Shown piece by piece: positions 4,752-18,659 of a stretch of 36,409 bases of DNA. The stretch comes from Anaerolineae bacterium. Lineage in GTDB: Bacteria; Chloroflexota; Anaerolineae; UBA4142; SHND01. The position numbers and the translations under genes were made by a program. The notes beneath the pieces were generated by a model. The model was not told where the DNA came from. It did no database searches and worked only from the letters and a program-made list of their open reading frames with translations. Numbering within the stretch: position 1 is the first letter of the stretch; each line of letters opens with the position of its first letter. The stretch is taken from the NCBI GenBank assembly GCA_022072245.1, contig JAJVIA010000122.1, forward strand, positions 1 through 36,409, read 5' to 3'.

Positions 4752-5228
4752 TCACTCGTCATCCGCGCCGCGATGCTTGGACAATGCCGCAATATGCAGG
4801 CGCAGCGTTTCAACGCGCTCTAACGTCGCGCGCATCATTTGACGCAATAGTTTCGCGCCCAGCGCGCAATCCTGTTCCATCAACGCGCGCAGCGCCTCCG
4901 CGTCCAGTTCCAAAAAACGGCTCACCACCAACGCGCGCGCGCCGGTGCGATAGACATACGGCGCCAACAATGCCGAAACGCCGAACGGGTCGCCCGAATT
5001 GATTTCGCCCGCAAACAAGGGCGTCGGATTCGTCGCGCTGACGGTGGTGTACAAATCCACTTCGCCGTCAATCAAAAAATAGAGCGCGCTCGCCGCGTCC
5101 TGTTCTTGAAAAATAACCGTATTTTCCAACACGGACGTATCGCGCGCCAGCGCGGCGAGGCGTTCCAATTCGTCCGTCGCGAACGGCGCAAAAAACGGAT
5201 AGCGTTGTAACAAAGTAATGGATACCAT
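4752..5228 (-). CDS. Crp-like cyclic-nucleotide-binding domain protein without HTH
   Basis: This 158-residue protein is a single cNMP-binding beta-roll (about residues 5-120: ITLLQRYPFF, then LYFLIDGEVDLY) followed by a helical tail. There is no DNA-binding domain, so it is not a Crp/Fnr regulator as it stands. The phosphate-binding cassette is degenerate: where the family has FGE, this protein reads FGV (82-84), although an Arg follows at 94 (YRTGARA). Nucleotide binding is therefore doubtful or altered. The ATG at 5228 is chosen because upstream in-frame sequence looks non-coding and an AGAGG stretch lies about 9 nt before it. It is divergent from the CHAT-SIR2 operon, which also encodes a cyclase. 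A functional link is attractive but inferred. Confidence 0.8.
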   Translation of the reverse strand: MVSITLLQRYPFFAPFATDELERLAALARDTSVLENTVIFQEQDAASALYFLIDGEVDLYTTVSATNPTPLFAGEINSGDPFGVSALLAPYVYRTGARALVVSRFLELDAEALRALMEQDCALGAKLLRQMMRATLERVETLRLHIAALSKHRGADDE

Positions 5229-5300
5229 AGCGTGAGACCTCTGGCAAACGGATAGGCGTATTTTCGCGCGCCGCCGCTTGACGGCGCAAAACATGACACG

Positions 5301-5329
5301 ATGATAAACGCGATATGCAAGTACAACAA
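5301..5329 (-). promoter_or_regulatory. Possible promoter of the cNMP-domain gene
   Basis: On the minus strand TTGTTG (5324-5329) and TATCAT (5301-5306) are spaced by 17 nt. The -10 matches 5 of 6 consensus bases but the -35 only 3 of 6. The predicted start near 5294 leaves a leader of about 65 nt to the ATG at 5228. Confidence 0.35.
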
Positions 5330-5383
5330 GTTGACGCCGACCAAGCCCCAAAAAAACGCGTATCCCAAGACAAATATATGTAA

Positions 5384-5431: not shown

Positions 5432-7474
5432 ATGAGCGATTACGCCGATTTGGAATTGATCTTGACGCGGTGGGACAAAGAAAGCTATCGGGTTGAATTG
5501 CGTTACAGCCAACCGGGCAGCGAAGCCGATACGCGTCTCGACGCGCCCGCGACCGCGCGCCTGGATCGTGTCGCGCTGCGCGCATTGGAATTACAACCGG
5601 ACGCGTACGGCAAAGCGTTGGGCGCAAGTTTATTCGGCGACGCCCAAATCAAAACCATGTTCGCGCAAGCGCGCGCGAGCGCGCAAGCGCAAAATTTGGA
5701 TTTGCGTTTGCGGCTCAGCATTGACCCGACGGCAGCCGAGCTGCACGAGCTGCATTGGGAAACGCTGCGCGACCCCTCTGATAATTCTTCGCTCGTCACT
5801 TCCGAACGCATTTTATTTACGCGCTATCTCGCCGCGCAAGATTTTCGGCCCGTCAAAATCAAACCGCAAAAAGATTTGCGCGCGCTCGTCTTTATTTCCA
5901 ATCCAACCAATCTTGGCGATTTGGATGGCTTTGCGCCGATTGACGCGGCGGGCGAATTGGAACGCGCGCAAAAAGCGTTGGGCAATCTCACGGTCACGAC
6001 GCTGGCGCCGCATGAGTTTGCAACGCTCAATCGGCTCGTCGAAAAATTGCGCGACGACATTGACATTTTGTATCTCGTCGCGCACGGCGCGGCGGGCGCC
6101 GCGGAATCGGTTATTTTTTTGCAAGACGATACCGGCAAGCTGCACGATGTCGCCGCGTCGGCGCTCGTCACGCGCCTGAACGAATTGCAAGACCCGCCGC
6201 GGCTCGTCGTTCTCGCCGCGTGCCAAAGCGCCAACATGGCTGCCGCAACCGATAACGACCGCGCGCTCGCGTCGCTGGGACCCCGCCTCGCGTCCGCGGG
6301 CGTGCCGGCGGTGATTGCGATGCAAGGCAATATCACGATGCAAACGGTCGCGCAATTCATGCCCGTCTTTTTCCGAGAGTTGAGCCGCGACGGCCAAATT
6401 GACCGCGCGATGGCGGCGGCGCGCGCGGCGGTGCGCGACAACGCGGACGCGTGGATGCCCGTTTTATTTTTGCGGCTCAAGAACGGCAAAATTTGGTACG
6501 TCCCCGGTTTCGGCGGCGACAAAGCCGCGTTTCAAAAATGGCCCGCGCTGATGGCTGCCATTCGCAAAGGTCGCTGTACGCCGATTTTGGGGCCCGGCCT
6601 TTCGGAGAGCGTATTCGGTTCACGCAGCGCGCTCGCCGCGCGTTGGGCAAAAAAATACAGCTTTCCCCTCGCGCCCTATGCCGCCGAAGATTTGCCCGAA
6701 GTCGCGCAATATATCGCCGTTGACCAAGCGCGCTTTTTGGTGCATGACGAATTGGAACAGGCGCTGAAACAAGAATTGGAACGCCGCTTTGGTTTGCAGC
6801 TCGCGCCCGCGCTGCAAAACGCGCCCTTGACCGAGCTGGTTCATGCCGTCGGCGCGCTGACGCGTCAAAACGCGCACGACCCGTACGCGGTGTTGGCGCA
6901 TTTGCCCTTTCCGGTGTACATCACGACAAATCCCGACAGCTTGATCATTGACGCGCTGCAAGCGGCGGGCAAAGAGCCGCAGGTAGAATTGTGTCAGTGG
7001 AACGACAACATCACGACACAAGCGCTCGCGCAAACGGCGAGCTCTTTTGTGCCGGACGAAAAACATCCGCTCGTCTATTGCCTGTTCGGACAATACAGCG
7101 ACTCCGATTCGCAGGTCATCACCGAAGACGATTATTTTGATTATCTCATCGGCGTCACGTCCAATAAAGATTTGATTCATCACGAAGTGAAACGCATGTT
7201 GACCGATTCGGCGCTGCTGTTTCTCGGTTTTCAATTGGACGATTGGAATTTCCGCGTCTTGTATCGCAGCATCATGTCGCAAGAGGGCGGCAACCGCCGT
7301 AAAAATCTGCCGCACATTGCCGCGCAAATTGACCCCGCCGAGGGGCGGCTCATCGAACCCGAACGCGCGCGCAAATATCTGGAAAATTATTTCGGCAACG
7401 CCGACATTAGCATTTATTGGGGCAGCGCGGAGGATTTTATTAAAGATTTAGAAAAACAGGGGGGCAATCAATAA
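5432..7474 (+). CDS. CHAT caspase-like protease fused to a SIR2-like domain
   Basis: This 680-residue protein has three parts. Residues 1 to about 145 match the N-terminal region common in CHAT proteins. A CHAT (clan CD, caspase-like) protease domain spans about 150-355, with the expected dyad His218 (LYLVAHG) and Cys264 (VLAACQSA). A SIR2_2-like domain fills about 365-675, with the glycine-rich ILGPGLSES, Asn500 and Asp502 in ITTNPDSL, the TEDDYFDYL stretch, and FLGFQLDDWNFRVL. In the position where many sirtuin-fold NADases have His-Gly this protein has Phe552-Gly (CLFG), so NAD hydrolysis is uncertain. Its TAA overlaps the ATG of the STAND gene by one base, implying coupled translation and a likely complex. 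Known CHAT proteases can be switched by partner proteins. An effector role here is inference. Confidence 0.85.
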   Translation: MSDYADLELILTRWDKESYRVELRYSQPGSEADTRLDAPATARLDRVALRALELQPDAYGKALGASLFGDAQIKTMFAQARASAQAQNLDLRLRLSIDPTAAELHELHWETLRDPSDNSSLVTSERILFTRYLAAQDFRPVKIKPQKDLRALVFISNPTNLGDLDGFAPIDAAGELERAQKALGNLTVTTLAPHEFATLNRLVEKLRDDIDILYLVAHGAAGAAESVIFLQDDTGKLHDVAASALVTRLNELQDPPRLVVLAACQSANMAAATDNDRALASLGPRLASAGVPAVIAMQGNITMQTVAQFMPVFFRELSRDGQIDRAMAAARAAVRDNADAWMPVLFLRLKNGKIWYVPGFGGDKAAFQKWPALMAAIRKGRCTPILGPGLSESVFGSRSALAARWAKKYSFPLAPYAAEDLPEVAQYIAVDQARFLVHDELEQALKQELERRFGLQLAPALQNAPLTELVHAVGALTRQNAHDPYAVLAHLPFPVYITTNPDSLIIDALQAAGKEPQVELCQWNDNITTQALAQTASSFVPDEKHPLVYCLFGQYSDSDSQVITEDDYFDYLIGVTSNKDLIHHEVKRMLTDSALLFLGFQLDDWNFRVLYRSIMSQEGGNRRKNLPHIAAQIDPAEGRLIEPERARKYLENYFGNADISIYWGSAEDFIKDLEKQGGNQ

Positions 7475-10400
7475 TGTCCAACCCCCGCCCCAATCCGTAT
7501 GTCGGCCCGCGACCGTACCGGACCGGCGAAAAAATGTACGGCCGCGAACGCGAAACGCGCGAGCTGCTCAATCTCTTGATTGCCGAGCGCATCGTTTTGT
7601 TGTACTCGCCGTCCGGCGCTGGCAAAACGTCGCTCATTCAAGCCGCGCTCTTGCCGCAATTGCGCCAAGAAGAATTTGTCGTCTTGCCGCCGATGCGCGT
7701 CAATAGCGAACCGCCGACGGCGGACAAGAACGAAACGCTCGCGCAATTTAATCGCTATGTTCTTTCGACATTGCTTTCGCTCGAAGAGGGCCAACCGCGC
7801 GAAAAACGTTTGCCGCTCGCGCAATTGGCGCAAATGTCATTCGACGCTTATTTCAAACAGCGCGCCGATTTGCAAGACAAAAATCCCGTTTTACTCTTTG
7901 ACCAATTCGAAGAAATCCTCACGACCGCGCCGATGGAACGCGACGCCAAGTACGCGTTCTTTGAACAAATCGGCGCCGCGCTGCGCGACCGTTCGCGGTG
8001 GGCGCTCTTTTCGATGCGCGAAGATTACATCGCGGGCCTTGACCCGTTCATTCGTCCGCTGCCCACGCGTTTTTCCACGCGCTATCGTCTCGACTTGCTC
8101 GGCACGGACGCGGCGCGCGACGCGCTTCAAAAACCCGCCCGCGACGCGGGCGTGGATTTCACCCATGCCGCCGCCAACAAATTGATTGACGATTTGCGTC
8201 AGGTGCACATTCAACGCCCCGACGGCGCTATGGAAACTCAACTCGGTTTGTACGTCGAACCCGTGCAGCTCCAAGTGGTGTGCTTGCGCTTGTGGAATAA
8301 TTTGTCCGCCGACCAACGCGCCATCGCCGAGACCGATGTCGTCCAAGTCGGCGATGTCAACAGCGCGCTGGCGAGCTATTACGAAATGCGCGTCGCCGCC
8401 GCGTCCGTCGCCACCGGCGAAACGGAACGCGCCATCCGCGAATGGTTCGACCGTCAGCTCATTACCGATGCCGGCGTGCGCGGCCAGGTGTTGATGGAAC
8501 CCGAACGCAGTCGCGGCTTGGCGAATCGGACGATTCGACTGTTGGAGGACGCGCATCTCGTGCGCGCGGATGAACGGCGCGGCGCGACTTGGTTCGAGCT
8601 CGCGCACGACCGCTTGATTGAACCGCTTCGCGACAACAACCGCGTCTGGTTTGAAAAAAATCTGAGCGCGTTCCAACAACAAGCGGATTTGTGGGAACGG
8701 CAGGGCCGCCCCGACGGTCTATTGCTGCGCGGCAAGGCGTGGGACGAAGGGTACCTGTGGGCGCAGCAGCACGCGCAAACTTTGACGCCGGTCGAACAAG
8801 CTTTTTTCAAAGAGAGCGACCAAGAAGATTTTCGTCTCAAAAAAGAGCGCCGCACGCAGCGCCGCATTCGCAATCTCGCGTTTGGCGCGACGGCGTTGAG
8901 CGTGATTGCGATTCTCGGCATTGTCGTCGCGTTGATTTCGCTCGCGCAATTGGGCAGCTCGCTGCAAGAAACCGACCAGGCGCGCGCCGAAGCGCTTGCC
9001 AAAGGCGATGAAGCCAATGCCGCGCGCTTGCAGGCGCAGCAGCAAGAACGCGTTTCCAAAATGACCGGCGCGGCGCTGTCGCAATTGAACGTGGACCCCG
9101 AAACGAGTTTGCTGTTGGCGATGCAGGCGTACAGCATTACGCAGACGACGCAGACCGACGACATTTTGCGTCAGGCGGTCACGGAATCGCGCGTGCGCGG
9201 AACCTTGCGCGGACACACCGATAGCGTGGATGCCGTGGCGGTGAGTCCCGACGGAAAATTTTTTGCCACCGCTTCGGGCGACGGCTCGGCGATTCTTTGG
9301 GATGCGACGAACGGCAAACCAACGCGCGTTCTCAAGGGTCACACCGCGCCGGTGTGGGGCGTCGTGTTCAGCCCTGACGGCAAAACTTTGTTGACGACCA
9401 GCGCGGACAAGACCGCGCGGTTGTGGGATTTGACTCACTGCAGCGGCGAGACCTGTCCCGCGCGCGAAATAACGGGACATACGGCGGCGGTGTGGAATGG
9501 CGCGTTCACTCCCGACGGCAAAGCGTTCGCCACCGTCAGCCAAGACGGCACGGCAAAACTTTGGGAAACCGCCAGCGGAAATTTTTTGGGCGACGTGGGT
9601 TCGCACACGCAAGACATCAACGGCATCGCCTTTAGCCCGGACGGCAGATTTTTTGCGACCGTAAGTTCGGACCGAACCGCGCAAGTGACCGATATCACCC
9701 AATGCGCCTACGACAAATGTACGTTTCAACCGTTTGAGACGCAAGCCGCCTTGTGGAGCGTCGCGTTCAGTCCCGACAGCAAAGCCATTGTGGTTGCGAG
9801 CGACGACCAGAACGCGTACAAAATCAATCTCGCAACCAACAGCATCGAAAATCAATTGAGCGGACACAGCGATTCCGTGTTGAGCGTCGCCTACAGTCCC
9901 GACGGCAAATATATTGCGACGGGCAGCCGCGATGGGACGGCGCGCCTTTGGGATGCCGCCACGGGCCAAGAGATTGCGATTTTGCGCGGTCACGACAATT
10001 CCGTGTGGAGCGTCGCGTTCACGCCCGACAGTCATTTATTGTTGACCGGCAGCGCGGACACTACCGCGCGGCTCTGGGATATTTCCGACAATGACGCGCT
10101 GCGCGTGTTGCGCGGCGCCTTGAACAAAATTTTGGGCGCCGCATACAGCGGCGACGGCGCGCGCGTCATTTCCGTCGGCGCAGACAGCAGCGCGCGCGTG
10201 TGGGATGTGGCGACCAATACCCTGCTTGCCAAACTCGAGGGACACAACGGTTGGGTTAGCGACGGCGCGTTAACTCGCGATGGCTCTCGCGCCGCCACCG
10301 CCAGCTTTGACGATACCGCGCGCATTTGGGATTTGAAACATTGCGCGCCCGCGTGTCCCTTTATCGAACTCAAGGGTCACGAAGCCATCGTACGCAGCAT

Positions 10401-11688
10401 CGCGTTCAGCCCCGACGAAAAATTTGTTTTGACCGCGAGCGAAGACAAGACCGCGCGGTTGTGGGACGCAACCACCGGCGCGTTGGTCAAAATCTTTACG
10501 GGGTCCTACAGCCCGTTGAATCATGCGTCATTCAATCACGACGGAACGCTCATCGTCACGGCAGGCAATGACCGCAACGCCATTCTCTGGGATGTGGCGA
10601 CCGGCGCGCCCACATTGACCTTGAGCGGCCACACGGGCGCGGTGAACAGCGCCGCCTTTAATGCCGACGGTACGCTGGTCGTCACGGCGAGCGATGACCG
10701 CACCGCGCGGATTTGGGATATTGTCCATTGCGCGCCAAACAGCCCTTGCCCGTTCAAAGAATTAAGAGGACATCTCGGCGCGGTGACAAGCGCAGCGTTC
10801 ACCCACGACGGCAAAAATATCGTCACCAGCAGCGCGGACCAGACCGTGCGCGTGTGGGACATAAATACGCTGCAAACGCTCAGCATCTTGCGCGGTCACA
10901 CCGACAAAGTGCAAACGGTCGCATTGAGTCCCGACGACCGATTTGTCTTGACCGCAAGCTCCGACAAAACGGTTCGCATCGTACCGCTTGCAATACATCA
11001 AGTTCTGGAACTCGCGCGTTTACGCGTAACGCGCGCGCTGTCGTGCGACGAATGGGCGCTCAACGTAGGCGACCCGAATTATTGTCCGGGCGGCGGCGTC
11101 ACGCAAAACGCCCATGCCTTGCCGACGCTTGCGCCCATCACGCGCGTCGCCGCCGCGCCAACCGAAAGCGCGCCGCCGACGCTTGCGCCAGCCACCCTTC
11201 CGCCCGCGACCGCGCAACCGACGCCGTTGCCCAATGCGCCAACCGCGACTGCGACGGCAACCGGCGAGGCGCCGCAACCGAGTCCCACCCTGCCGCTAGT
11301 GGCGACGGCGCCGCCCGCGACGCCAACGCCCGCCCTCGCGCCCGGCGTCTATATTTCGCAGCTCGTCTATCAACCGCTGGACGCGCCCAATTTTCAATTC
11401 CGCGTCACATTTCTCAATACCACCGGCGCGCCGGTCACGTATGCCAATTGGCGCGTGCCGTTTTATGAACCCGGCGCAAAAAATTCTATCGGCGCGCCCA
11501 AAGGCGTTGATAAAACGATTCCGGTTGGCGACGCTACCTTGCTGACCGAAACGTGGAAAGTGGGCGTCGGACAATGCACCGCTTACACGGCGAAACCGGT
11601 CTATGAAGATGGCGCGGGCCGTCAAACGCCGTTTAGTTTTACGGACGGACAACCCGCGACGCTTGATTTTCAAATTTGTCCGCCCTGA
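7474..11688 (+). CDS. nSTAND NTPase with membrane helix, 14 WD40 repeats and C-terminal Cys-paired domain
   Basis: This 1404-residue protein begins with a STAND-type NTPase. The P-loop is SPSGAGKT with Lys51, and Walker B is LLFDQFEE with Asp143 and Glu146/147, followed by a winged-helix-like region to about 460. A basic stretch (KKERRTQRRIR) precedes one hydrophobic helix at about 468-493, so positive-inside places the NTPase in the cytoplasm and the rest outside. A short coiled coil follows, then 14 WD40 units (about 575-1172), enough for two seven-bladed propellers. Next come a Thr/Pro/Ala-rich linker (about 1209-1289) and a 115-residue C-terminal domain shared with the next gene. Several blades carry Cys pairs in loops. 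It starts on the stop codon of the CHAT-SIR2 gene. Likely role: a ligand-sensing switch controlling the protease partner. The ligand is unknown. Confidence 0.88.
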   Translation: MSNPRPNPYVGPRPYRTGEKMYGRERETRELLNLLIAERIVLLYSPSGAGKTSLIQAALLPQLRQEEFVVLPPMRVNSEPPTADKNETLAQFNRYVLSTLLSLEEGQPREKRLPLAQLAQMSFDAYFKQRADLQDKNPVLLFDQFEEILTTAPMERDAKYAFFEQIGAALRDRSRWALFSMREDYIAGLDPFIRPLPTRFSTRYRLDLLGTDAARDALQKPARDAGVDFTHAAANKLIDDLRQVHIQRPDGAMETQLGLYVEPVQLQVVCLRLWNNLSADQRAIAETDVVQVGDVNSALASYYEMRVAAASVATGETERAIREWFDRQLITDAGVRGQVLMEPERSRGLANRTIRLLEDAHLVRADERRGATWFELAHDRLIEPLRDNNRVWFEKNLSAFQQQADLWERQGRPDGLLLRGKAWDEGYLWAQQHAQTLTPVEQAFFKESDQEDFRLKKERRTQRRIRNLAFGATALSVIAILGIVVALISLAQLGSSLQETDQARAEALAKGDEANAARLQAQQQERVSKMTGAALSQLNVDPETSLLLAMQAYSITQTTQTDDILRQAVTESRVRGTLRGHTDSVDAVAVSPDGKFFATASGDGSAILWDATNGKPTRVLKGHTAPVWGVVFSPDGKTLLTTSADKTARLWDLTHCSGETCPAREITGHTAAVWNGAFTPDGKAFATVSQDGTAKLWETASGNFLGDVGSHTQDINGIAFSPDGRFFATVSSDRTAQVTDITQCAYDKCTFQPFETQAALWSVAFSPDSKAIVVASDDQNAYKINLATNSIENQLSGHSDSVLSVAYSPDGKYIATGSRDGTARLWDAATGQEIAILRGHDNSVWSVAFTPDSHLLLTGSADTTARLWDISDNDALRVLRGALNKILGAAYSGDGARVISVGADSSARVWDVATNTLLAKLEGHNGWVSDGALTRDGSRAATASFDDTARIWDLKHCAPACPFIELKGHEAIVRSIAFSPDEKFVLTASEDKTARLWDATTGALVKIFTGSYSPLNHASFNHDGTLIVTAGNDRNAILWDVATGAPTLTLSGHTGAVNSAAFNADGTLVVTASDDRTARIWDIVHCAPNSPCPFKELRGHLGAVTSAAFTHDGKNIVTSSADQTVRVWDINTLQTLSILRGHTDKVQTVALSPDDRFVLTASSDKTVRIVPLAIHQVLELARLRVTRALSCDEWALNVGDPNYCPGGGVTQNAHALPTLAPITRVAAAPTESAPPTLAPATLPPATAQPTPLPNAPTATATATGEAPQPSPTLPLVATAPPATPTPALAPGVYISQLVYQPLDAPNFQFRVTFLNTTGAPVTYANWRVPFYEPGAKNSIGAPKGVDKTIPVGDATLLTETWKVGVGQCTAYTAKPVYEDGAGRQTPFSFTDGQPATLDFQICPP
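9199..10990 (+). repeat. 14 WD40 repeat units inside the STAND gene
   Basis: Fourteen units of about 40 codons each carry the pattern GH..V.sVAfSPDG...atas.D.tarlWD. Most show the terminal WD or a close variant. The units are diverged in DNA sequence, so this is an old array rather than a recent expansion. Blades 3, 5, 10 and 13 are preceded by loops with two cysteines 3-5 residues apart (for example HCSGETC and QCAYDKC). Confidence 0.9.
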
Positions 11689-11776: not shown

Positions 11777-12463
11777 ATGAAACAACTCGGCGTCCTATTG
11801 ACTCTAATCCTTTGCGCCAGCGCGTGCAGCGCGCCCGCCAATCCCACCGCGCCGCCTCAAGCCACTGTCGCGCCTTCCGCCGCCGCGCCCGCGTTCCGCA
11901 CCGAAATTCCGGTCGTGAATACGCGCACCGACCGCATCGCGCCGACTCTGGCGCCGACCCAACCGCCCACCGAAATTCCCACCGTCGCGCCTACTTTCAC
12001 CACAACGCTGCCGCCGACAATCGCGCCGACCATCGCGCCGACCACCGCGCCAACTCTTGCGCCAACCATCGCGTCTGCGTCGCCGACGACATCCGCGCGC
12101 GCGCCGGGGGTGTATGTGACGGATTTGAAAATCAATCCGCCGCAGCCCAAAAACAAACCCGCCGAATTTTTCTTTACCGTCGCCTTTTTGAACACCGTCG
12201 GCGCGAACGTCAATTATCCGCGCTGGCGCGTTTTGATTTTTCCCAAAGGACAAAACAATACCATCGGCGACCCGGAAGGTTTGAGTAAAACGATTCTTGA
12301 CGGCGCGTCCACCCAAGATACCAAATCTTGGACCATTCGCGTCGCCAGCGTCTGCGAAACGTTTGTCGCGCAGCCGATTTGGCAAGATGAAAACGGCGGT
12401 CGTCACACGCTCACGCAGCCCGACGGCGCCCCATTGACATTGGAATTTCAAATTTGCCCATGA
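11777..12463 (+). CDS. Putative lipoprotein with the C-terminal domain of the STAND protein
   Basis: This 228-residue protein starts with a short hydrophobic signal ending in ASAC, a tolerable lipobox with Cys17 as the lipidated residue. A Thr/Pro/Ala-rich linker runs from about 18 to 108. The C-terminal domain (about 109-228) closely parallels the last 115 residues of the upstream STAND-WD40 protein. Shared landmarks are APGVY, FLNT.GA, WRV, a KTI segment, a Cys before the A.P motif, and a terminal FQICP. The conserved Cys pair suggests a disulfide outside the membrane. I do not recognise the domain's family; an Ig-like beta sandwich is plausible. The gene lies 88 nt after the STAND gene and its stop overlaps the next start (ATGA). 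It may compete or pair with the STAND C-terminus on the cell surface, which is inference. Confidence 0.8.
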   Translation: MKQLGVLLTLILCASACSAPANPTAPPQATVAPSAAAPAFRTEIPVVNTRTDRIAPTLAPTQPPTEIPTVAPTFTTTLPPTIAPTIAPTTAPTLAPTIASASPTTSARAPGVYVTDLKINPPQPKNKPAEFFFTVAFLNTVGANVNYPRWRVLIFPKGQNNTIGDPEGLSKTILDGASTQDTKSWTIRVASVCETFVAQPIWQDENGGRHTLTQPDGAPLTLEFQICP

Positions 12464-14103
12464 GCGAGCCCTTGCTGTATTTCAATGGCGTCAATGCGAG
12501 TCGCGGCGGGTATCTCACGCCGCCGATGCCCGCGCCCGCGCTAGCTCAGATCGCGCGCGGCGATGCCATCAGCGCGGAAAAACTCGCCGAGGCGAAATGG
12601 CGGCTCGAACAAAAAAAATCTCATCTCGGCGTCAAGGCGGGCGTGGACCCGACCAAAATCGAACAAGCGGGCTGGGGCGTCATTTTCGCGCGCGATGAAA
12701 AACCGGCGGTGCGCGACGCGCTGCGCGAATTATTGGACTATCGCCAAACGCAAGCGAATCAAATCAAGGAACGCTATCGCGAGTATTGGGGCGACGACGG
12801 GTATCGTCCGCACGAAAGCAAAAATGATTTTATCGCGCGGCATGGCGCGGGCGTTGGCGCGGTGGACCCGGATAAAATCCCGTACTATTTGCTTCTCGTC
12901 GGCGACCCCGAAAAAATTCCGTACCATTTTCAATATCAACTCGACGTCGCGTACGCCGTCGGACGCATTTATTTTGATACCGTCAAAGAATACGCGCAGT
13001 ACGCGCAGAGCGTCGTGCGCGCGGAAAAAGGGTTCGTCACGCGCGGCAAACGCGCGGTCTTGTTCGGGCCCGTCAATCCCGACGATGCCAGCACGCAAGC
13101 CAGCGCGCGCAATCTCACCGCGCCGCTTGCCGATACGCTGCGCGCCCAAGCGCCGGATTGGACGTTCGATTCCGTTCTCGCCGAACGCGCCACCAAAAAT
13201 CGTTTGGAAGAAACTTTACGCGACGACGCCCCCGCGTTTTTATTCACCGCCTCGCACGGCGCGGGTTTTGATTTGGGCGAACCGCGTCAAATGAAACATC
13301 AAGGCGCGCTCGTCACGCAAGAATGGGGCGGTCCCGTGGCGATGCAGAATCAACCCGTGCCGCAAACCATGTATTATGCGATGGACGATGTGCCGGGCGA
13401 CGCGCGTCTGCACGGTTTGATTTCTTTTCACTTTGCCTGTTTCGGCGCCGGCACGCCGCGTTATGACGAATTCGCGCATTTACGGCAAGGCGTCAGGGGC
13501 AATCTGGAAGCGATTCCAATCGCGCCCGCGTCATTCGTCGCGCGCTTGCCGCAGCAATTGTTGGCGCACCCAAAAGGCGGCGCGCTCGCGGTGATTGGAC
13601 ATGTGGATCGCGCGTGGGGTTCGTCCTTTTTATGGCAGCAAAACGTTTCGCAACTCGGCACATTTGAAAGCATGTTGACGCGATTGTTCGAGGGCTATCC
13701 CGTCGGCGCGGCGATGGAATATTTTAACGAACGTTATGCCGAACTCGCGGCGGCGCTCGCGGGCGATTTGGAAAATTTAAAAAAGCCGTACTTGAAAGTG
13801 GACGTCAATGCGTTTGCGACCTTGTGGACGGCGCACAATGACGCGCGCGGTTACGCCGTTATCGGCGACCCCGCCGTGCGTTTGCAGTCCAAACCCGGCG
13901 TCGCCGCGGCGCCGCAAACGGAATCTATTGCGCTGCGTACAGAAATATCGAACGCGGATCAAGTCCAAACAACAGCGACAACCGAATCTGCAATGAGCGT
14001 TGCAGAATTGGAAACGACGATTGCAAATTTGGAACGACAAATCGCCGCGCTCACAGCCCAAGTTATCAAATTACGCGCGGCGCTTGAAACCAAACAAACG
14101 TGA
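12460..14103 (+). CDS. Gingipain (C25)-like clan CD cysteine protease
   Basis: This 547-residue protein has the layout of C25-like peptidases. The strand motif YYLLLVGDPEKIP (142-154) precedes DVAYAVGRIYF (162-172). The catalytic His266 is in FTASHGAGF and the likely nucleophile Cys327 is in SFHFACFGAG. A late HVDRAWG motif also fits. The C-terminus (about 515-547) is a predicted coiled coil (ELETTIANLERQI onward), suited to oligomerisation or docking. No signal peptide is present, so it is probably cytoplasmic, unlike secreted gingipains. Its ATG lies inside the lipoprotein stop (ATGA, 12460-12463) and no ribosome binding site is visible, so translation should be coupled. It is the second caspase-fold protease in the run, after the CHAT protein. 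Target specificity cannot be read from sequence. Confidence 0.8.
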   Translation: MSEPLLYFNGVNASRGGYLTPPMPAPALAQIARGDAISAEKLAEAKWRLEQKKSHLGVKAGVDPTKIEQAGWGVIFARDEKPAVRDALRELLDYRQTQANQIKERYREYWGDDGYRPHESKNDFIARHGAGVGAVDPDKIPYYLLLVGDPEKIPYHFQYQLDVAYAVGRIYFDTVKEYAQYAQSVVRAEKGFVTRGKRAVLFGPVNPDDASTQASARNLTAPLADTLRAQAPDWTFDSVLAERATKNRLEETLRDDAPAFLFTASHGAGFDLGEPRQMKHQGALVTQEWGGPVAMQNQPVPQTMYYAMDDVPGDARLHGLISFHFACFGAGTPRYDEFAHLRQGVRGNLEAIPIAPASFVARLPQQLLAHPKGGALAVIGHVDRAWGSSFLWQQNVSQLGTFESMLTRLFEGYPVGAAMEYFNERYAELAAALAGDLENLKKPYLKVDVNAFATLWTAHNDARGYAVIGDPAVRLQSKPGVAAAPQTESIALRTEISNADQVQTTATTESAMSVAELETTIANLERQIAALTAQVIKLRAALETKQT

Positions 14104-14181
14104 CGCGCGCCGCCGTCACATTCACACGACAAAGGGCGGCGAATTTCATTGCGCCAAATTTGTCGCCTCAAGGAGGCAGCT

Positions 14182-14502
14182 ATGAGCCACACAATTCTCG
14201 TGTTCGTGAACGTGAGCCGTCAAGACGCGTTCATCTATTTCAATACGTCAGAGGGCAACACGTTACTCGCCGGCAAACTTGCGGCGGGCGAAAGCGCGCG
14301 GCAGATCGCGCGCGCGGGCGAAAAATGGAGCGTCACCGCCGGCGATACCTACACGCTGACGGTAGGCGACCAAAATCGCGCCTATCTCATCGGCAGCGGC
14401 GGCGTCTATGAAGTGGACAAGCCGCGCGCGCTGACGCCCGACGGCGGCGGCGCAACCAATGATTTTGATTTTCCCAGCTTTGGCGGGGGACCCTGGCCGT
14501 AG
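14182..14502 (+). CDS. Small VHL-beta-domain-like protein
   Basis: This 106-residue protein has a strong ribosome binding site (AAGGAGG, 6 nt before the ATG). Residues 3 to about 75 resemble the beta domain of the von Hippel-Lindau protein: an opening strand ILVFVNVS followed by FIYFNT, then LAAGES, then GEKWSV and a Thr-rich strand. The match is by eye and moderate. The last 25 residues are disordered-looking and Gly/Asp/Phe-rich (PDGGGATNDFDFPSFGG, ending PWP), a possible docking or cleavage tail. It has no signal peptide or cysteines. It sits 78 nt after the C25-like protease and 2 nt before the cyclase gene. A binding adaptor or protease substrate role is inference. Otherwise it is a hypothetical small protein. 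Confidence 0.72.
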   Translation: MSHTILVFVNVSRQDAFIYFNTSEGNTLLAGKLAAGESARQIARAGEKWSVTAGDTYTLTVGDQNRAYLIGSGGVYEVDKPRALTPDGGGATNDFDFPSFGGGPWP

Positions 14503-14504
14503 AC

Positions 14505-17500
14505 ATGAGCGCGCTGCCGCCCTATCTTGCCCAAGACCGCCGCCGCGCGCTGGCGCGCAACGAATCGCTCCCGGACCGCGCCGACGGCGCGGTCTTGTTT
14601 GCGGACATTTCCGGTTTTACGCCGTTAACGGAAGCGTTCACGCGCAGCTTGGGCGCGCGGCGCGGCGCCGAAGAATTGACGCGTCAACTTAACGCCGTGT
14701 ACGACGCGCTGATTGTCGAAATCGAAAATTTCGACGGCAGCGTCATCAATTTCGCGGGCGATGCGGCTTTGTGTTGGTTTGCGGAAAATTCTGCGGGAGA
14801 ACCGCGCGCGGCGCTGCGCGCCACGGCGTGCGCGTTTGCCTTGCAGCGCGCGATGCAGCAATTTTCAGCCGTGCCGTTACCGGACAATCTCACGGTTCCA
14901 ATCGCCATCAAGATCGCCATCGCCTATGGCGCGGTCCGCCGTTTTGTCGTCGGCGACCCCAACATTCGCGTCCTGGATGTTATCGCGGGCGCCCCGGTCA
15001 CGCGCAGCGGCATCGCCGAACATCTCACGCAGCGCGGCGAAATCGCGCTGGATGAGCCAACCGTCCAAGCGCTCGGCGCGCAAATTGAAATTCAAGCATG
15101 GCGCAATGCGACGGACACAGACGCGCGTTTCGCCATCGCGCGCGCGCTGCTTTCGCGCGTTCCCCCAACGCCCCCCGCCGCTTTTCCGCCGCTTGCCGAC
15201 TCGCAAGTCAAACCGTGGCTTTTCGACGCGGTGTACAAACGCTTGGCTGCCAAAGGCGAAATCTTTTTGACCGAACTGCGGCCCGTCGTCGCGCTCTTTG
15301 GGCGCTTTCAAGGCATTGATTTTGAAACGGATGAAACGGCGGACGAAAAATTAAATCTATTTATTTCGCGCGTGCAGCAAATTCTCGACCGCTATGGCGG
15401 CGCGCTCTTGGAACTCACCATCGGCGACAAGGGCAGCTATTTTTATGCCGCGTTCGGCGCGCCGCAGATTCACGAAGATGACGCGCGCCGCGCAGTGTTT
15501 GCAGCGCGCGAACTCTTTCCGTTATGCGTCGAACTCGGTTTTTTGGAACCGCTGCAAGTGGGCATCAGTCAAGGCGTCATGCGCGTCGGCGCGTACGGCG
15601 GCCGCACGCGCCGCATCTATGGCGCGCAAGGCGACGAGGTAAATCTCGCCGCGCGACTCATGACCGAAGCGAAACCCGGGACGCTGTTGGTGAGCGGACA
15701 CATTCAAAAAAATGTCGCCAATGAATTCGATTTAGAGCCGCTGCCGCCCATTCACTTGAAAGGCAAGGCAGAGCCGCTGCCGCCGTTTCTTGTCGTCGGC
15801 GTGCGCGAGACGCGCGTCAAGCAATTGCAAGAAGCGTACTATACCTTGCCGATGATTGGGCGCGAGGCGGAACTCGCGTTGATTCTAACCAAAATCGAAT
15901 TGGCGCGGCGCGGCCAAGGTCAAATCATTGCGCTCAGCGCGCCCGCCGGGGTTGGCAAATCGCGCATGACCGCCGAAATCATTCGGCTCATGCGGCGGCG
16001 GCGCGAAACGAGTTACGGCGGCGAATGTCAATCGTTCGGCGTCAACATTCCTTATCTGGTCTGGGGCCCAATTCTGCGCGCGTTTTTTGGCATAGACACG
16101 AATCTGCCTACGCGCCGTCAGATTCGCGCATTGGAAAATGAAATCGCCGCGCTGGCGCCGCGGCGTTTCGAGGCGCTGCCCTTGTTGAGCGCGCTGGTGG
16201 ATCTGCCGATTCCCGAAAATGATTTTACGCGCGCGCTCGAACCGGAATTTCGAAAAACAGTTTTGCACGCTTTGCTGCGCGATTGCTTTTCGGCTGCGGC
16301 GGATGAAGCGCGCGCGCAAGGGCAGGCGCTTTTATTTGTGCTGGAAGATATTCATTGGATTGACCCCGCTTCGCTTGAATTGCTGCAAGAGCTGGCGACG
16401 GGAATTGAAAAATTGCCGATTGTGATATTGCTAAATTATCGCCCCTCCGAAACGGACGCGCATTTTTTGCCCCAACTCGATACGCTCGCTTTTTTTACGC
16501 GTCTCGCGCTCAATGAATTGACCGACGCGCAAGGCGCGGATTTGATTCGCGCAAAATTGGCGCAGCACGCGCCCGAAAGCGGCCAAGCGACGCCGCCCGC
16601 GTTGATTGAACGCGTGAACGCCCAAGCGCAAGGCAATCCGTTTTATATCGAACAATTGTTGGATTACATTCACGACCGCGATTTGGATTTCCGCAATCCG
16701 CAGCAGGCGAGCGCATTCGAACTGCCCAATACGCTGCATCGTCTCGTGTTGACCCGTCTCGAACGCTTGAGCCAAGCGCAGCGCCTCGCGTTAAAAGCCG
16801 CCAGCGTCATTGGACGCTGGTTCAGTTTCGCGCATCTGTGCGGCTATTTCCCCGCGCTCGGTTCGCCCGAACAGACGCGCGCCGAGTTGACCTTGACGCT
16901 GCGCTCCGACCTCATTGCGCTAGACCATCCCGACCCCGACCTCACGTATGTTTTCAAACACGTCGTGACGCACCAAGTCGCTTACGAGGCGTTAACCTTT
17001 GCTACGCGCGCCCAACTCCATGAAGCGTACGCGCAATTTTTGGAACGCCATAACGAACCCGAACGCACGCTCGATTTGCTGGCATATCATTACGACCGCA
17101 GCAAGAACAAGGCGAAACGACTTGAATACCTGACGCGCGCGGGCCAAGCCGCGGCGGCGCGTTTTGCCAACACGGAAGCGGTGAATTATTTGACGCGCGC
17201 GTTGGCGCTGACGACCGACGCGCAGCGCGCCGAGCGTTTCAAGCTGTTGGACGCGCGCGCGCGCGTATTTGAAGTGCAAGGCGCGCGCGACGCGCAGCGC
17301 GCCGACCTCGACGCGTTGGAACGCCTCGCGCAAGAGCTTGACGACCCGTTCAAATATCTGAGCGTCCTGTTGGAACAGGGGTGGCTGGCGGAACGGCTTG
17401 CCGAACACGAAACGGCGCGCGCGCTAATTCGCCGCGTCCAAGAGGGCTTGACGCAGCGCGCGCTCGGCGCGGACGCGCGCGCGCATCTGGAAATCGAAGT

Positions 17501-18659
17501 TCTCTTGCTCGAAGGCGCAGTATTGTGGCAGCAAGGCGCCGCCGCCGCCGCGCGGCCCATTATGGCACGCGCATTGGCTCACGCCAACGCGCGCGCCGAC
17601 GACGCTGAACAAGCGCGCGCGCGCGGTTTCTTGGCCCAAGTCTTGAACGAGCTGGGCGAATATGACGCGGCGCAAACAAATTACGAGCAACTTTTAGAGT
17701 ACGCCCGCGCGCGCCAAGACAAACGCCGCGAATGGTCGGCGCTCACGACATTGGGTTTAATCGCAACCGAGCGCGGCGATTTTGACTTGGGCCTCGCGCA
17801 CTATACGGCGAGTTTGGATATTGTCCGCGCCATCGGCGACCGACAGGGCGAAGGACTCGTCCTCTCCAATATCGCGCAAGCGCAGCTCGAACAGGGCGCG
17901 TATGACCGCGCGCTCGAATTGGGCTTGCAAGCGCGCGCCATTGCGAACGCCATTAACGACCGGCGCGGCGTGTGTCGAATCGAGCTCAATCTGGGCGAAA
18001 CCTATCGCTTGCTCGGACAATATGACAACGCGGAAGCGCACACCGCCGACGCGCAGCGCCGCGCCAATGAATTGGAGGATTGGCTTTACCAAGTCGGCGC
18101 GATGGTCAATCACGCCGCCATTCAATTGGACCGCCAAGCGTTTGCGCGCGCGCAAGCATCCGCTGTCGAGTGCGTCGCGCGCGCGCGCGCCATACATCAC
18201 CGCGCCTTGACCGGCTTTGCGTATAATCTGTTGGCGCAAACGCAGCTCGCGTTGGACAAACTCGGCGCCGCGCAAGAATCTTGTACGCAAGCGTTAGCGA
18301 GCTGGCAGACGCTCGAATCATCGCCTTATCGTCTGCAAACGCACGCCTGTTTGGCTGAAATCGCGCGGCGGCAAAATGATTTCGCGCGCGCGCAAAACGA
18401 GTGTGCGGCGATTTTTGAATTTCTCTACGCGCACCCGAATCGTCAAGGCGCTCCGTCGGCGCTTGCCGCGCTGCTGGCTTGCTATCAAGTCGCGCGCGCA
18501 AGACACGACGCCAACGCGTCCGCGCTATTGGACAAAGCGTACGCGCAATTGCAAGCGCGCGCCGAAAAAATTTCGGACGCGGCGCTGCGTCAATGTTTTC
18601 TCGAAAATGTACCGACCAATGCAGAAATTACGCGCCTCTGGCGCGCGCAGTTATCCTGA
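14505..18659 (+). CDS. Soluble adenylyl cyclase-like protein: two class III cyclase domains, AAA/STAND ATPase, TPRs
   Basis: This 1384-residue protein has the domain order of mammalian soluble adenylyl cyclase. Cyclase domain 1 (about 25-200) holds both metal aspartates, Asp34 in FADISGF and Asp86 in NFAGDAA. Domain 2 (about 258-430) lacks the first metal Asp (LFGRFQG) but keeps the transition-state pair Asn380 and Arg384 in VNLAARL. One composite active site making cAMP or cGMP is therefore expected. An AAA_16/STAND ATPase follows (P-loop APAGVGKS with Lys485, Walker B LLFVLEDIHW near 610), then TPR-like helical repeats from about 860 to the end. Asn82 sits where a purine-contacting Lys is common, so substrate choice is unclear. 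It starts 2 nt after the small VHL-like gene and no regulator domain is attached. Coupling to the protease run is inferred from context. Confidence 0.88.
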   Translation: MSALPPYLAQDRRRALARNESLPDRADGAVLFADISGFTPLTEAFTRSLGARRGAEELTRQLNAVYDALIVEIENFDGSVINFAGDAALCWFAENSAGEPRAALRATACAFALQRAMQQFSAVPLPDNLTVPIAIKIAIAYGAVRRFVVGDPNIRVLDVIAGAPVTRSGIAEHLTQRGEIALDEPTVQALGAQIEIQAWRNATDTDARFAIARALLSRVPPTPPAAFPPLADSQVKPWLFDAVYKRLAAKGEIFLTELRPVVALFGRFQGIDFETDETADEKLNLFISRVQQILDRYGGALLELTIGDKGSYFYAAFGAPQIHEDDARRAVFAARELFPLCVELGFLEPLQVGISQGVMRVGAYGGRTRRIYGAQGDEVNLAARLMTEAKPGTLLVSGHIQKNVANEFDLEPLPPIHLKGKAEPLPPFLVVGVRETRVKQLQEAYYTLPMIGREAELALILTKIELARRGQGQIIALSAPAGVGKSRMTAEIIRLMRRRRETSYGGECQSFGVNIPYLVWGPILRAFFGIDTNLPTRRQIRALENEIAALAPRRFEALPLLSALVDLPIPENDFTRALEPEFRKTVLHALLRDCFSAAADEARAQGQALLFVLEDIHWIDPASLELLQELATGIEKLPIVILLNYRPSETDAHFLPQLDTLAFFTRLALNELTDAQGADLIRAKLAQHAPESGQATPPALIERVNAQAQGNPFYIEQLLDYIHDRDLDFRNPQQASAFELPNTLHRLVLTRLERLSQAQRLALKAASVIGRWFSFAHLCGYFPALGSPEQTRAELTLTLRSDLIALDHPDPDLTYVFKHVVTHQVAYEALTFATRAQLHEAYAQFLERHNEPERTLDLLAYHYDRSKNKAKRLEYLTRAGQAAAARFANTEAVNYLTRALALTTDAQRAERFKLLDARARVFEVQGARDAQRADLDALERLAQELDDPFKYLSVLLEQGWLAERLAEHETARALIRRVQEGLTQRALGADARAHLEIEVLLLEGAVLWQQGAAAAARPIMARALAHANARADDAEQARARGFLAQVLNELGEYDAAQTNYEQLLEYARARQDKRREWSALTTLGLIATERGDFDLGLAHYTASLDIVRAIGDRQGEGLVLSNIAQAQLEQGAYDRALELGLQARAIANAINDRRGVCRIELNLGETYRLLGQYDNAEAHTADAQRRANELEDWLYQVGAMVNHAAIQLDRQAFARAQASAVECVARARAIHHRALTGFAYNLLAQTQLALDKLGAAQESCTQALASWQTLESSPYRLQTHACLAEIARRQNDFARAQNECAAIFEFLYAHPNRQGAPSALAALLACYQVARARHDANASALLDKAYAQLQARAEKISDAALRQCFLENVPTNAEITRLWRAQLS

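What the first reader, a model, noticed from the sequence alone, without database searches (positions are those of the whole stretch)
14182..14502. Small VHL-beta-like protein with a Gly/Asp/Phe tail, placed between a protease and a cyclase
The N-terminal 75 residues look like a VHL beta domain, and the last 25 form a low-complexity tail with DFDFPSF and a final PWP. It has the strongest ribosome binding site in the run, implying high output. The tail could be a docking motif or protease substrate for the C25-like or CHAT enzyme.
Basis: inference. Interest (0 to 1): 0.6.

Follow-up and report, generated by a model that had tools for sequence, protein, structure and literature searches.

The report
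VHL-like adaptor with conserved glycine tail
A small bacterial protein, with a core folded like the binding half of the human VHL protein and a short floppy tail that evolution keeps almost unchanged, sits in a probable cell-defence or cell-death gene cluster, where it probably acts as a plentiful linker that docks one protein of the cluster to another.

Summary
The ORF at 14182-14502 is a real gene. Four of the five other genomes of the genus keep it, always between a gingipain-like C25 peptidase and a tandem-cyclase/AAA/TPR protein. The one genome without it also lacks the cluster's CHAT-SIR2 gene and the orthologous C25.

The core (residues 1-79) is modelled as an all-beta sandwich whose best PDB matches are the VHL beta domain. 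Six of ten invariant residues in the aligned stretch coincide with VHL residues. The hydroxyproline pocket and the elongin-binding helices are missing, and Pfam VHL does not match: VHL-like in fold, not a VHL.

The tail is real and selected. Between two genomes whose cores are 41% identical, 12 of 13 tail residues match despite six synonymous changes. All five tails fit D-x-[DE]-F-P-x(0,2)-[FI]-G-G-G; the final WP is in only three. The Shine-Dalgarno is the strongest in the run and strong in all relatives.

Docking tail and protease substrate remain undecided. The tail keeps no Arg or Lys, which speaks mildly against C25 cleavage, and a fused C25-small model shows no docking. Most likely it is an abundant adaptor in a CHAT/nSTAND/C25/cyclase conflict-type module; function is inferred.

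The parts
14170..14176 (+). Shine-Dalgarno AAGGAGG, 5 nt before the start codon
   Evidence: sequence; duplex energy -11.2 kcal/mol, strongest in the run; strong SD in the other four genomes
14182..14502 (+). small protein, 106 aa
   Evidence: orthologues in G002-G005
14182..14418 (+). core, residues 1-79: VHL-beta-like sandwich; W49, N10, G25, G36, R40 invariant
   Evidence: model m67222f115bcf, fold searches, alignment A1
14419..14460 (+). variable linker, residues 80-93
   Evidence: low identity between genomes; pLDDT < 50
14461..14499 (+). conserved disordered tail, residues 94-106 (DFDFPSFGGGPWP); family pattern D-x-[DE]-F-P-x(0,2)-[FI]-G-G-G
   Evidence: pLDDT about 31-36
12454..14103 (+). 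C25 (gingipain-fold) cysteine peptidase, probable start ATG 12460, catalytic His at 13255-13257 and Cys at 13438-13440, C-terminal coiled-coil helix
   Evidence: Pfam C25; fold Z 26.2 to RgpB; H and C invariant in 15 relatives
14505..18659 (+). tandem cyclase - AAA_16 - TPR protein, start 2 nt after the small gene's stop
5432..7474 (+). CHAT peptidase - SIR2-like protein
   Evidence: CHAT E 4e-27, SIR2_2 E 1e-19
7474..11688 (+). nSTAND1 NTPase - probable TM helix - WD40 - C-terminal beta domain
11777..12463 (+). probable lipoprotein whose C-terminal domain is homologous to that of the nSTAND-WD40 protein
   Evidence: ORF; cross-matches 38-41% between the two families of proteins

Best explanation
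The protein is an abundant cytoplasmic adaptor of a CHAT-SIR2 / nSTAND-WD40 / C25 / cyclase-AAA-TPR module. Its VHL-beta-like sandwich binds one partner. After a flexible linker, its short tail (D-x-[DE]-F-P-x(0,2)-[FI]-GGG) acts as a linear docking motif in a pocket of a second partner, most plausibly the C25 peptidase or the cyclase-AAA-TPR protein between which it is always encoded. It would thereby tether protease and signalling protein in one complex, and its high translation makes it stoichiometric or in excess. Shown: gene, conservation, synteny, co-occurrence, disordered conserved tail, strong RBS, VHL-like model. Inferred: partner binding, tethering, and the role in defence or cell death.
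For: Gene kept in 5 of 6 genomes of the genus at the same place and absent where CHAT-SIR2 and the orthologous C25 are absent. Tail 12/13 identical between G000 and G004 with 6 synonymous codon changes, against 32/79 in the core: the signature of a short linear motif and not of a filler. Tail predicted disordered alone and in the C25 fusion. Core resembles a protein-binding domain, VHL beta. Strong SD in all five, always stronger than that of the flanking C25 and cyclase genes. Neighbours are the enzyme types of NTPase-dependent conflict systems (PMC7159879, PMC10907252). No catalytic motif is apparent in the small protein.
Against: No partner has been shown. The fused C25-small model gives no confident docking of core or tail, though with five small-protein sequences this is weak evidence. 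The tail conservation is strongest among three genomes; against G005 and G002 the tail is not more conserved than the core. Only five homologues are known, all from one genus.
Confidence: 0.45

Rival explanations
1. Protease substrate or pro-effector: the C25 or CHAT peptidase cuts the exposed linker/tail on activation, releasing the core or the tail peptide as the active species.
For: Adjacent to an intact clan CD peptidase (H and C invariant; gingipain fold Z 26), with a CHAT peptidase in the same run. High expression and an exposed tail suit a substrate. In related C25 operons of another family, linkers of C25 and of its neighbours carry a recurrent ASFG-like motif that could be a processing site.
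Against: Clan CD peptidases are generally strict at P1, RgpB for Arg (PMC4357240); no Arg or Lys is conserved in the linker or tail, only D94. The tail is longer and more constrained than a P4-P1' site needs. The ASFG motif is not a conserved feature of these tails (PSFG in two of five).
Confidence: 0.22
2. Inhibitor or chaperone of the C25 peptidase or the CHAT protein (securin-like): made in excess to keep a cytoplasmic clan CD protease silent, with the tail sitting in the active-site cleft as a pseudosubstrate.
For: Gene directly next to the protease with a much stronger RBS, present in every genome with the orthologous C25. The C25 lacks a visible prodomain before the catalytic domain. Separase-securin shows the principle in the same clan (structural neighbours).
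Against: Related C25 peptidases in other operons do without such a partner. The fused model does not place the tail with confidence.
Confidence: 0.18
3. Part of the signalling branch only: a ligand-binding or regulatory subunit of the downstream cyclase-AAA-TPR protein, its strong RBS serving partly to drive translation of the tightly coupled cyclase gene.
For: Cyclase start lies 2 nt after the stop in the window and close behind it in the others; cyclase genes have weak SDs of their own.
Against: Coupling alone does not explain conservation of the tail amino acids with changing codons.
Confidence: 0.1

Closest known systems
VHL beta domain (Pfam PF01847, human pVHL)
   Same: Seven-strand beta sandwich; best Foldseek hits (E 5e-4 to 2e-3), Z 7.8-8.5, 73 residues at 2.1-2.4 A; ungapped alignment in which F8, N10, G25, G36, R40 and W49 (all invariant) equal pVHL F76, N78, G93, G104, R108, W117
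   Different: Hydroxyproline-pocket residues Y98, H110, S111, H115 are A30, I42, A43, E47 here; no alpha domain for elongin C; has a conserved disordered tail; no Pfam VHL match; 18% identity
RodZ C-terminal domain (Pfam PF13464)
   Same: Sub-threshold HMMER match E 0.0023, 18.3 bits against a cut-off of 23.9, residues 41-65; a small beta domain
   Different: Below the curated cut-off; profile-profile score 17.6 (E 0.017) lower than VHL's 23.4; no HTH or TM part of RodZ
NTPase-dependent conflict systems of multicellular bacteria (STAND NTPase + peptidase + adaptor; PMC7159879, PMC10907252)
   Same: nSTAND1 NTPase with WD40 sensor, CHAT caspase-like peptidase, effector-type SIR2, small non-enzymatic protein
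   Different: Adaptor is a separate VHL-like protein and not a shared effector-associated domain; addition of a cytosolic gingipain-fold peptidase and a cyclase-AAA-TPR protein; C25 and VHL are not mentioned in PMC7159879
Gingipain family C25 (neighbouring protease)
   Same: Fold (Z 26.2 to RgpB, 317 residues, 3.3 A) and His/Cys dyad
   Different: No signal peptide or secretion domain visible; in an operon with signalling NTPases

Membership tests
VHL beta domain | beta-sandwich fold of the pVHL beta domain | tested here: met
   top Foldseek hits, Z about 8 over 73 residues; model confidence moderate (pLDDT 78-84 over residues 11-50, 62-72 elsewhere in the core) and other sandwiches score equally, so this is met at fold level only
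VHL beta domain | significant match to the family profile (PF01847) | tested here: not met
   no hit in hmmscan at E <= 10 for any of five members; PF01847 not found in the window's genome
VHL beta domain (pVHL) | hydroxyproline-binding residues Y98, S111, H115, W117 | tested here: not met
   alignment: only W117 (W49) retained
pVHL E3 subunit | alpha domain binding elongin C | tested here: not met
   protein ends 27 residues after the core; model shows no helix
RodZ_C | match above the Pfam gathering score | tested here: not met
   18.3 against 23.9 bits
STAND/CHAT conflict systems | NTPase, sensor repeats and peptidase effector encoded together and gained or lost as a unit | tested here: met
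   operon kept in G000, G002-G005; CHAT-SIR2, orthologous C25 and small gene all missing in G001 (93% complete)
STAND/CHAT conflict systems | protective or suicidal activity on phage infection | not testable with these tools
   needs experiment
peptidase substrate | conserved P1 residue in the exposed tail | tested here: inconclusive
   no conserved Arg/Lys; D94 conserved; specificity of this C25 and CHAT unknown

The most novel reading that the evidence does not exclude
The tail is a new linear motif by which a VHL-like adaptor recruits or silences a cytosolic gingipain-fold protease within an NTPase-controlled death or defence complex, that is, a bacterial counterpart of a protease-adaptor with a separate degron-like or pseudosubstrate peptide.
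Probability: 0.2. Interest if true: 0.7.

Novelty: new variant of a known kind. Interest (0 to 1): 0.45.

Why it matters
Peptidases of the gingipain fold are known mainly as secreted virulence enzymes; a cytosolic one wired to a STAND NTPase, a CHAT-SIR2 protein and a cyclase would be a new layout of a bacterial death or defence machine. The small protein carries the most constrained short motif found here, so it is the natural handle for finding which proteins form the complex. If the tail proves to be a docking or pseudosubstrate peptide, it would show how such proteases are held in check.

Tried and rejected
Sequence search of 60 relatives, 400 genomes of the phylum and two scans of genome contigs found no homologue outside the genus; hits at E 0.005-0.08 were short pieces inside long unrelated ORFs. 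PDB sequence searches gave nothing. RodZ_C as the true family: lower profile score than VHL, kept only as a possible distant relative (the column-shuffle control gave implausible scores and was discarded, and the first RodZ_C extraction had wrong strands). SSB-type acidic tip: rejected, since SSB tips end in -F and the tail here ends in Gly or WP. RiPP precursor: rejected, no maturation enzyme in the run, although the cyclase protein has a sub-threshold TOMM kinase/cyclase match. Ubiquitin-like with GG tail: rejected on fold (all beta, no helix) and no E1/E2 genes. Shared tail on other proteins: DNA pattern for DFDFP in six genomes gave 17 hits; only the three small genes have it at a C-terminus followed by Gly-rich sequence. 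C25-small fused prediction (same frame, TGA read as W) to look for docking: C25 confident, small domain about 50 and tail about 30 pLDDT, so no docking seen. Profile search of A3 against the PDB to map the S1 pocket gave no gingipain alignment.

Full report
What is there. The frame 14182-14502 (+) encodes 106 residues, MSHTILVFVN...NDFDFPSFGGGPWP. The run around it is CHAT-SIR2 (5432-7474), nSTAND1-WD40 (7474-11688), a probable lipoprotein (11777-12463), a C25 peptidase (12454/12460-14103), the small gene, and a tandem-cyclase/AAA/TPR protein (14505-18659), all on the + strand and nearly touching. The window lies in a 4.0 Mb, 80% complete genome; relatives found in genome contigs are labelled Anaerolineae or Chloroflexota MAGs.

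Is it a gene? Yes. Of the five other genomes of the genus, four (G002-G005) have an orthologue between the C25 and the cyclase genes, 75, 45, 43 and 39% identical. G001 (93% complete) has none, and it also lacks CHAT-SIR2 and the orthologous C25, having only a 37% paralogue. The module therefore behaves as one unit. No homologue was found outside the genus, within the limits of those samples.

The core. AlphaFold2 with five sequences gives an all-beta model, pLDDT 78-84 over residues 11-50 and 62-72 over the rest of the core, and a disordered 82-106. Foldseek's best PDB hits are nearly all pVHL chains, E 5e-4 to 2e-3; VIA-align gives Z 7.8-8.5 over 73 residues at 2.1-2.4 A, but HGSNAT, AlgF and PepT2 domains reach the same Z, so the safe statement is a small sandwich of which VHL is the best-ranked known example. 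In that alignment six of the ten residues invariant among the five homologues in that stretch are identical in pVHL (F76, N78, G93, G104, R108, W117). The pocket for hydroxyproline is gone (Y98, H110, S111, H115 become A, I, A, E) and there is no alpha domain. Pfam's VHL model does not match; a short sub-threshold RodZ_C match (18.3 against 23.9 bits) is the only library hit, and RodZ_C scores lower in profile comparison (17.6).

The tail. The five tails are DFDFPSFGGGPWP, DFDFPIGGGLGGWP, DFDFPSFGGGGWP, DAEFPLNIGGGG and DSEFPTYIGGG; all fit D-x-[DE]-F-P-x(0,2)-[FI]-G-G-G. Between G000 and G004 the core keeps 32 of 79 residues, the linker 4 of 14 and the tail 12 of 13, and 6 of those 12 use different synonymous codons. 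So the tail is selected as protein, more strongly than the fold it hangs on, in this comparison. Against G005 and G002 it is about as conserved as the core. The motif DFDFP at a protein end occurs nowhere else in the six genomes.

Expression. AAGGAGG with a spacing of five gives the best anti-SD pairing of the run (-11.2 kcal/mol), and the small gene has a much better site than the flanking C25 and cyclase genes in all five genomes.

Neighbours. The C25 protein has a gingipain fold (Z 26.2 to RgpB over 317 residues), an invariant His268/Cys329 dyad in 15 relatives, no visible signal peptide and a C-terminal coiled-coil helix. CHAT, SIR2-like, nSTAND1 and cyclase domains are the usual parts of NTPase-controlled conflict systems (PMC7159879 and PMC10907252 describe STAND NTPases with caspase-like peptidases and small adaptor domains). 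That this module is a defence or death system is inference from its parts.

How it probably works. A small, abundant, non-enzymatic protein with a binding-type fold and a separate disordered, highly conserved peptide is best read as an adaptor: the sandwich holds one partner, the tail another (confidence 0.45). The substrate reading (0.22) suffers because clan CD peptidases are generally strict at P1, with RgpB specific for Arg (PMC4357240), and no Arg or Lys is kept in linker or tail; but the specificity of this C25 and of the CHAT is unknown. An inhibitor/chaperone reading (0.18) is also open. I tried to see docking by folding C25 and the small protein as one chain, which is possible because both lie in one frame separated by one TGA; C25 came out well, the small domain at about 50 and the tail at about 30 pLDDT, so this neither supports nor excludes contact.

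Verdict. Observation confirmed; interpretation partly supported. A new small family in a variant layout of a known kind of system; mechanism inferred.

Noticed in passing
L052-L059 (C25 operons of another Chloroflexota family), L055 1417-2730: A short motif [AV]SF[SG], mostly ASFG, recurs in the linker of the C25 protein and one to three times in its otherwise unrelated neighbour of about 248 aa, and once in a protein beside another C25: 13 ASFG against 1.5 expected by shuffling. It looks like a protease-processing or docking signal of those systems.
   Followed up: partly
L060 (G000:C120), L083 (G001:C205), L084 (G003:C115), L082 (G004:C144): Further C25 operons in the same genus: beside the C25 lie proteins of about 210, 247 and 110 aa, and in L060, L083 and L084 also two caspase-like C14 proteins; an LCAT-like hydrolase is nearby in L082-L084. 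Possibly a separate family of peptidase modules.
   Followed up: partly
window 7474-11688 and 11777-12463: The nSTAND-WD40 protein and the next-door probable lipoprotein share a homologous C-terminal beta domain, in all five genomes, perhaps sensing the same outside ligand.
   Followed up: no
window 4752-5351 (-): A cyclic-nucleotide-binding-domain protein (PF00027 E 7e-12) is transcribed divergently from the cyclase-bearing run and kept at the same place in G003.
   Followed up: no
window 14505-18659: Layout cyclase-cyclase-AAA-TPR, like that of soluble adenylyl cyclases; by eye the first cyclase domain keeps the metal aspartates and the second looks degenerate. Sub-threshold match to TOMM kinase/cyclase TIGR03903.
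   Followed up: no
L008 4726-7034, L009 7622-10071: In G005 and G002 an AAA ATPase (for L009) and an alpha-acetolactate decarboxylase family protein are inserted in the run before the C25 gene.
   Followed up: no
window 14101-14181; L006, L008, L009: C25 and small gene lie in the same frame with only one stop (TGA) between them in four of five genomes; G004 is out of frame with TAA. Probably chance, but a fused ancestor or readthrough is conceivable.
   Followed up: no
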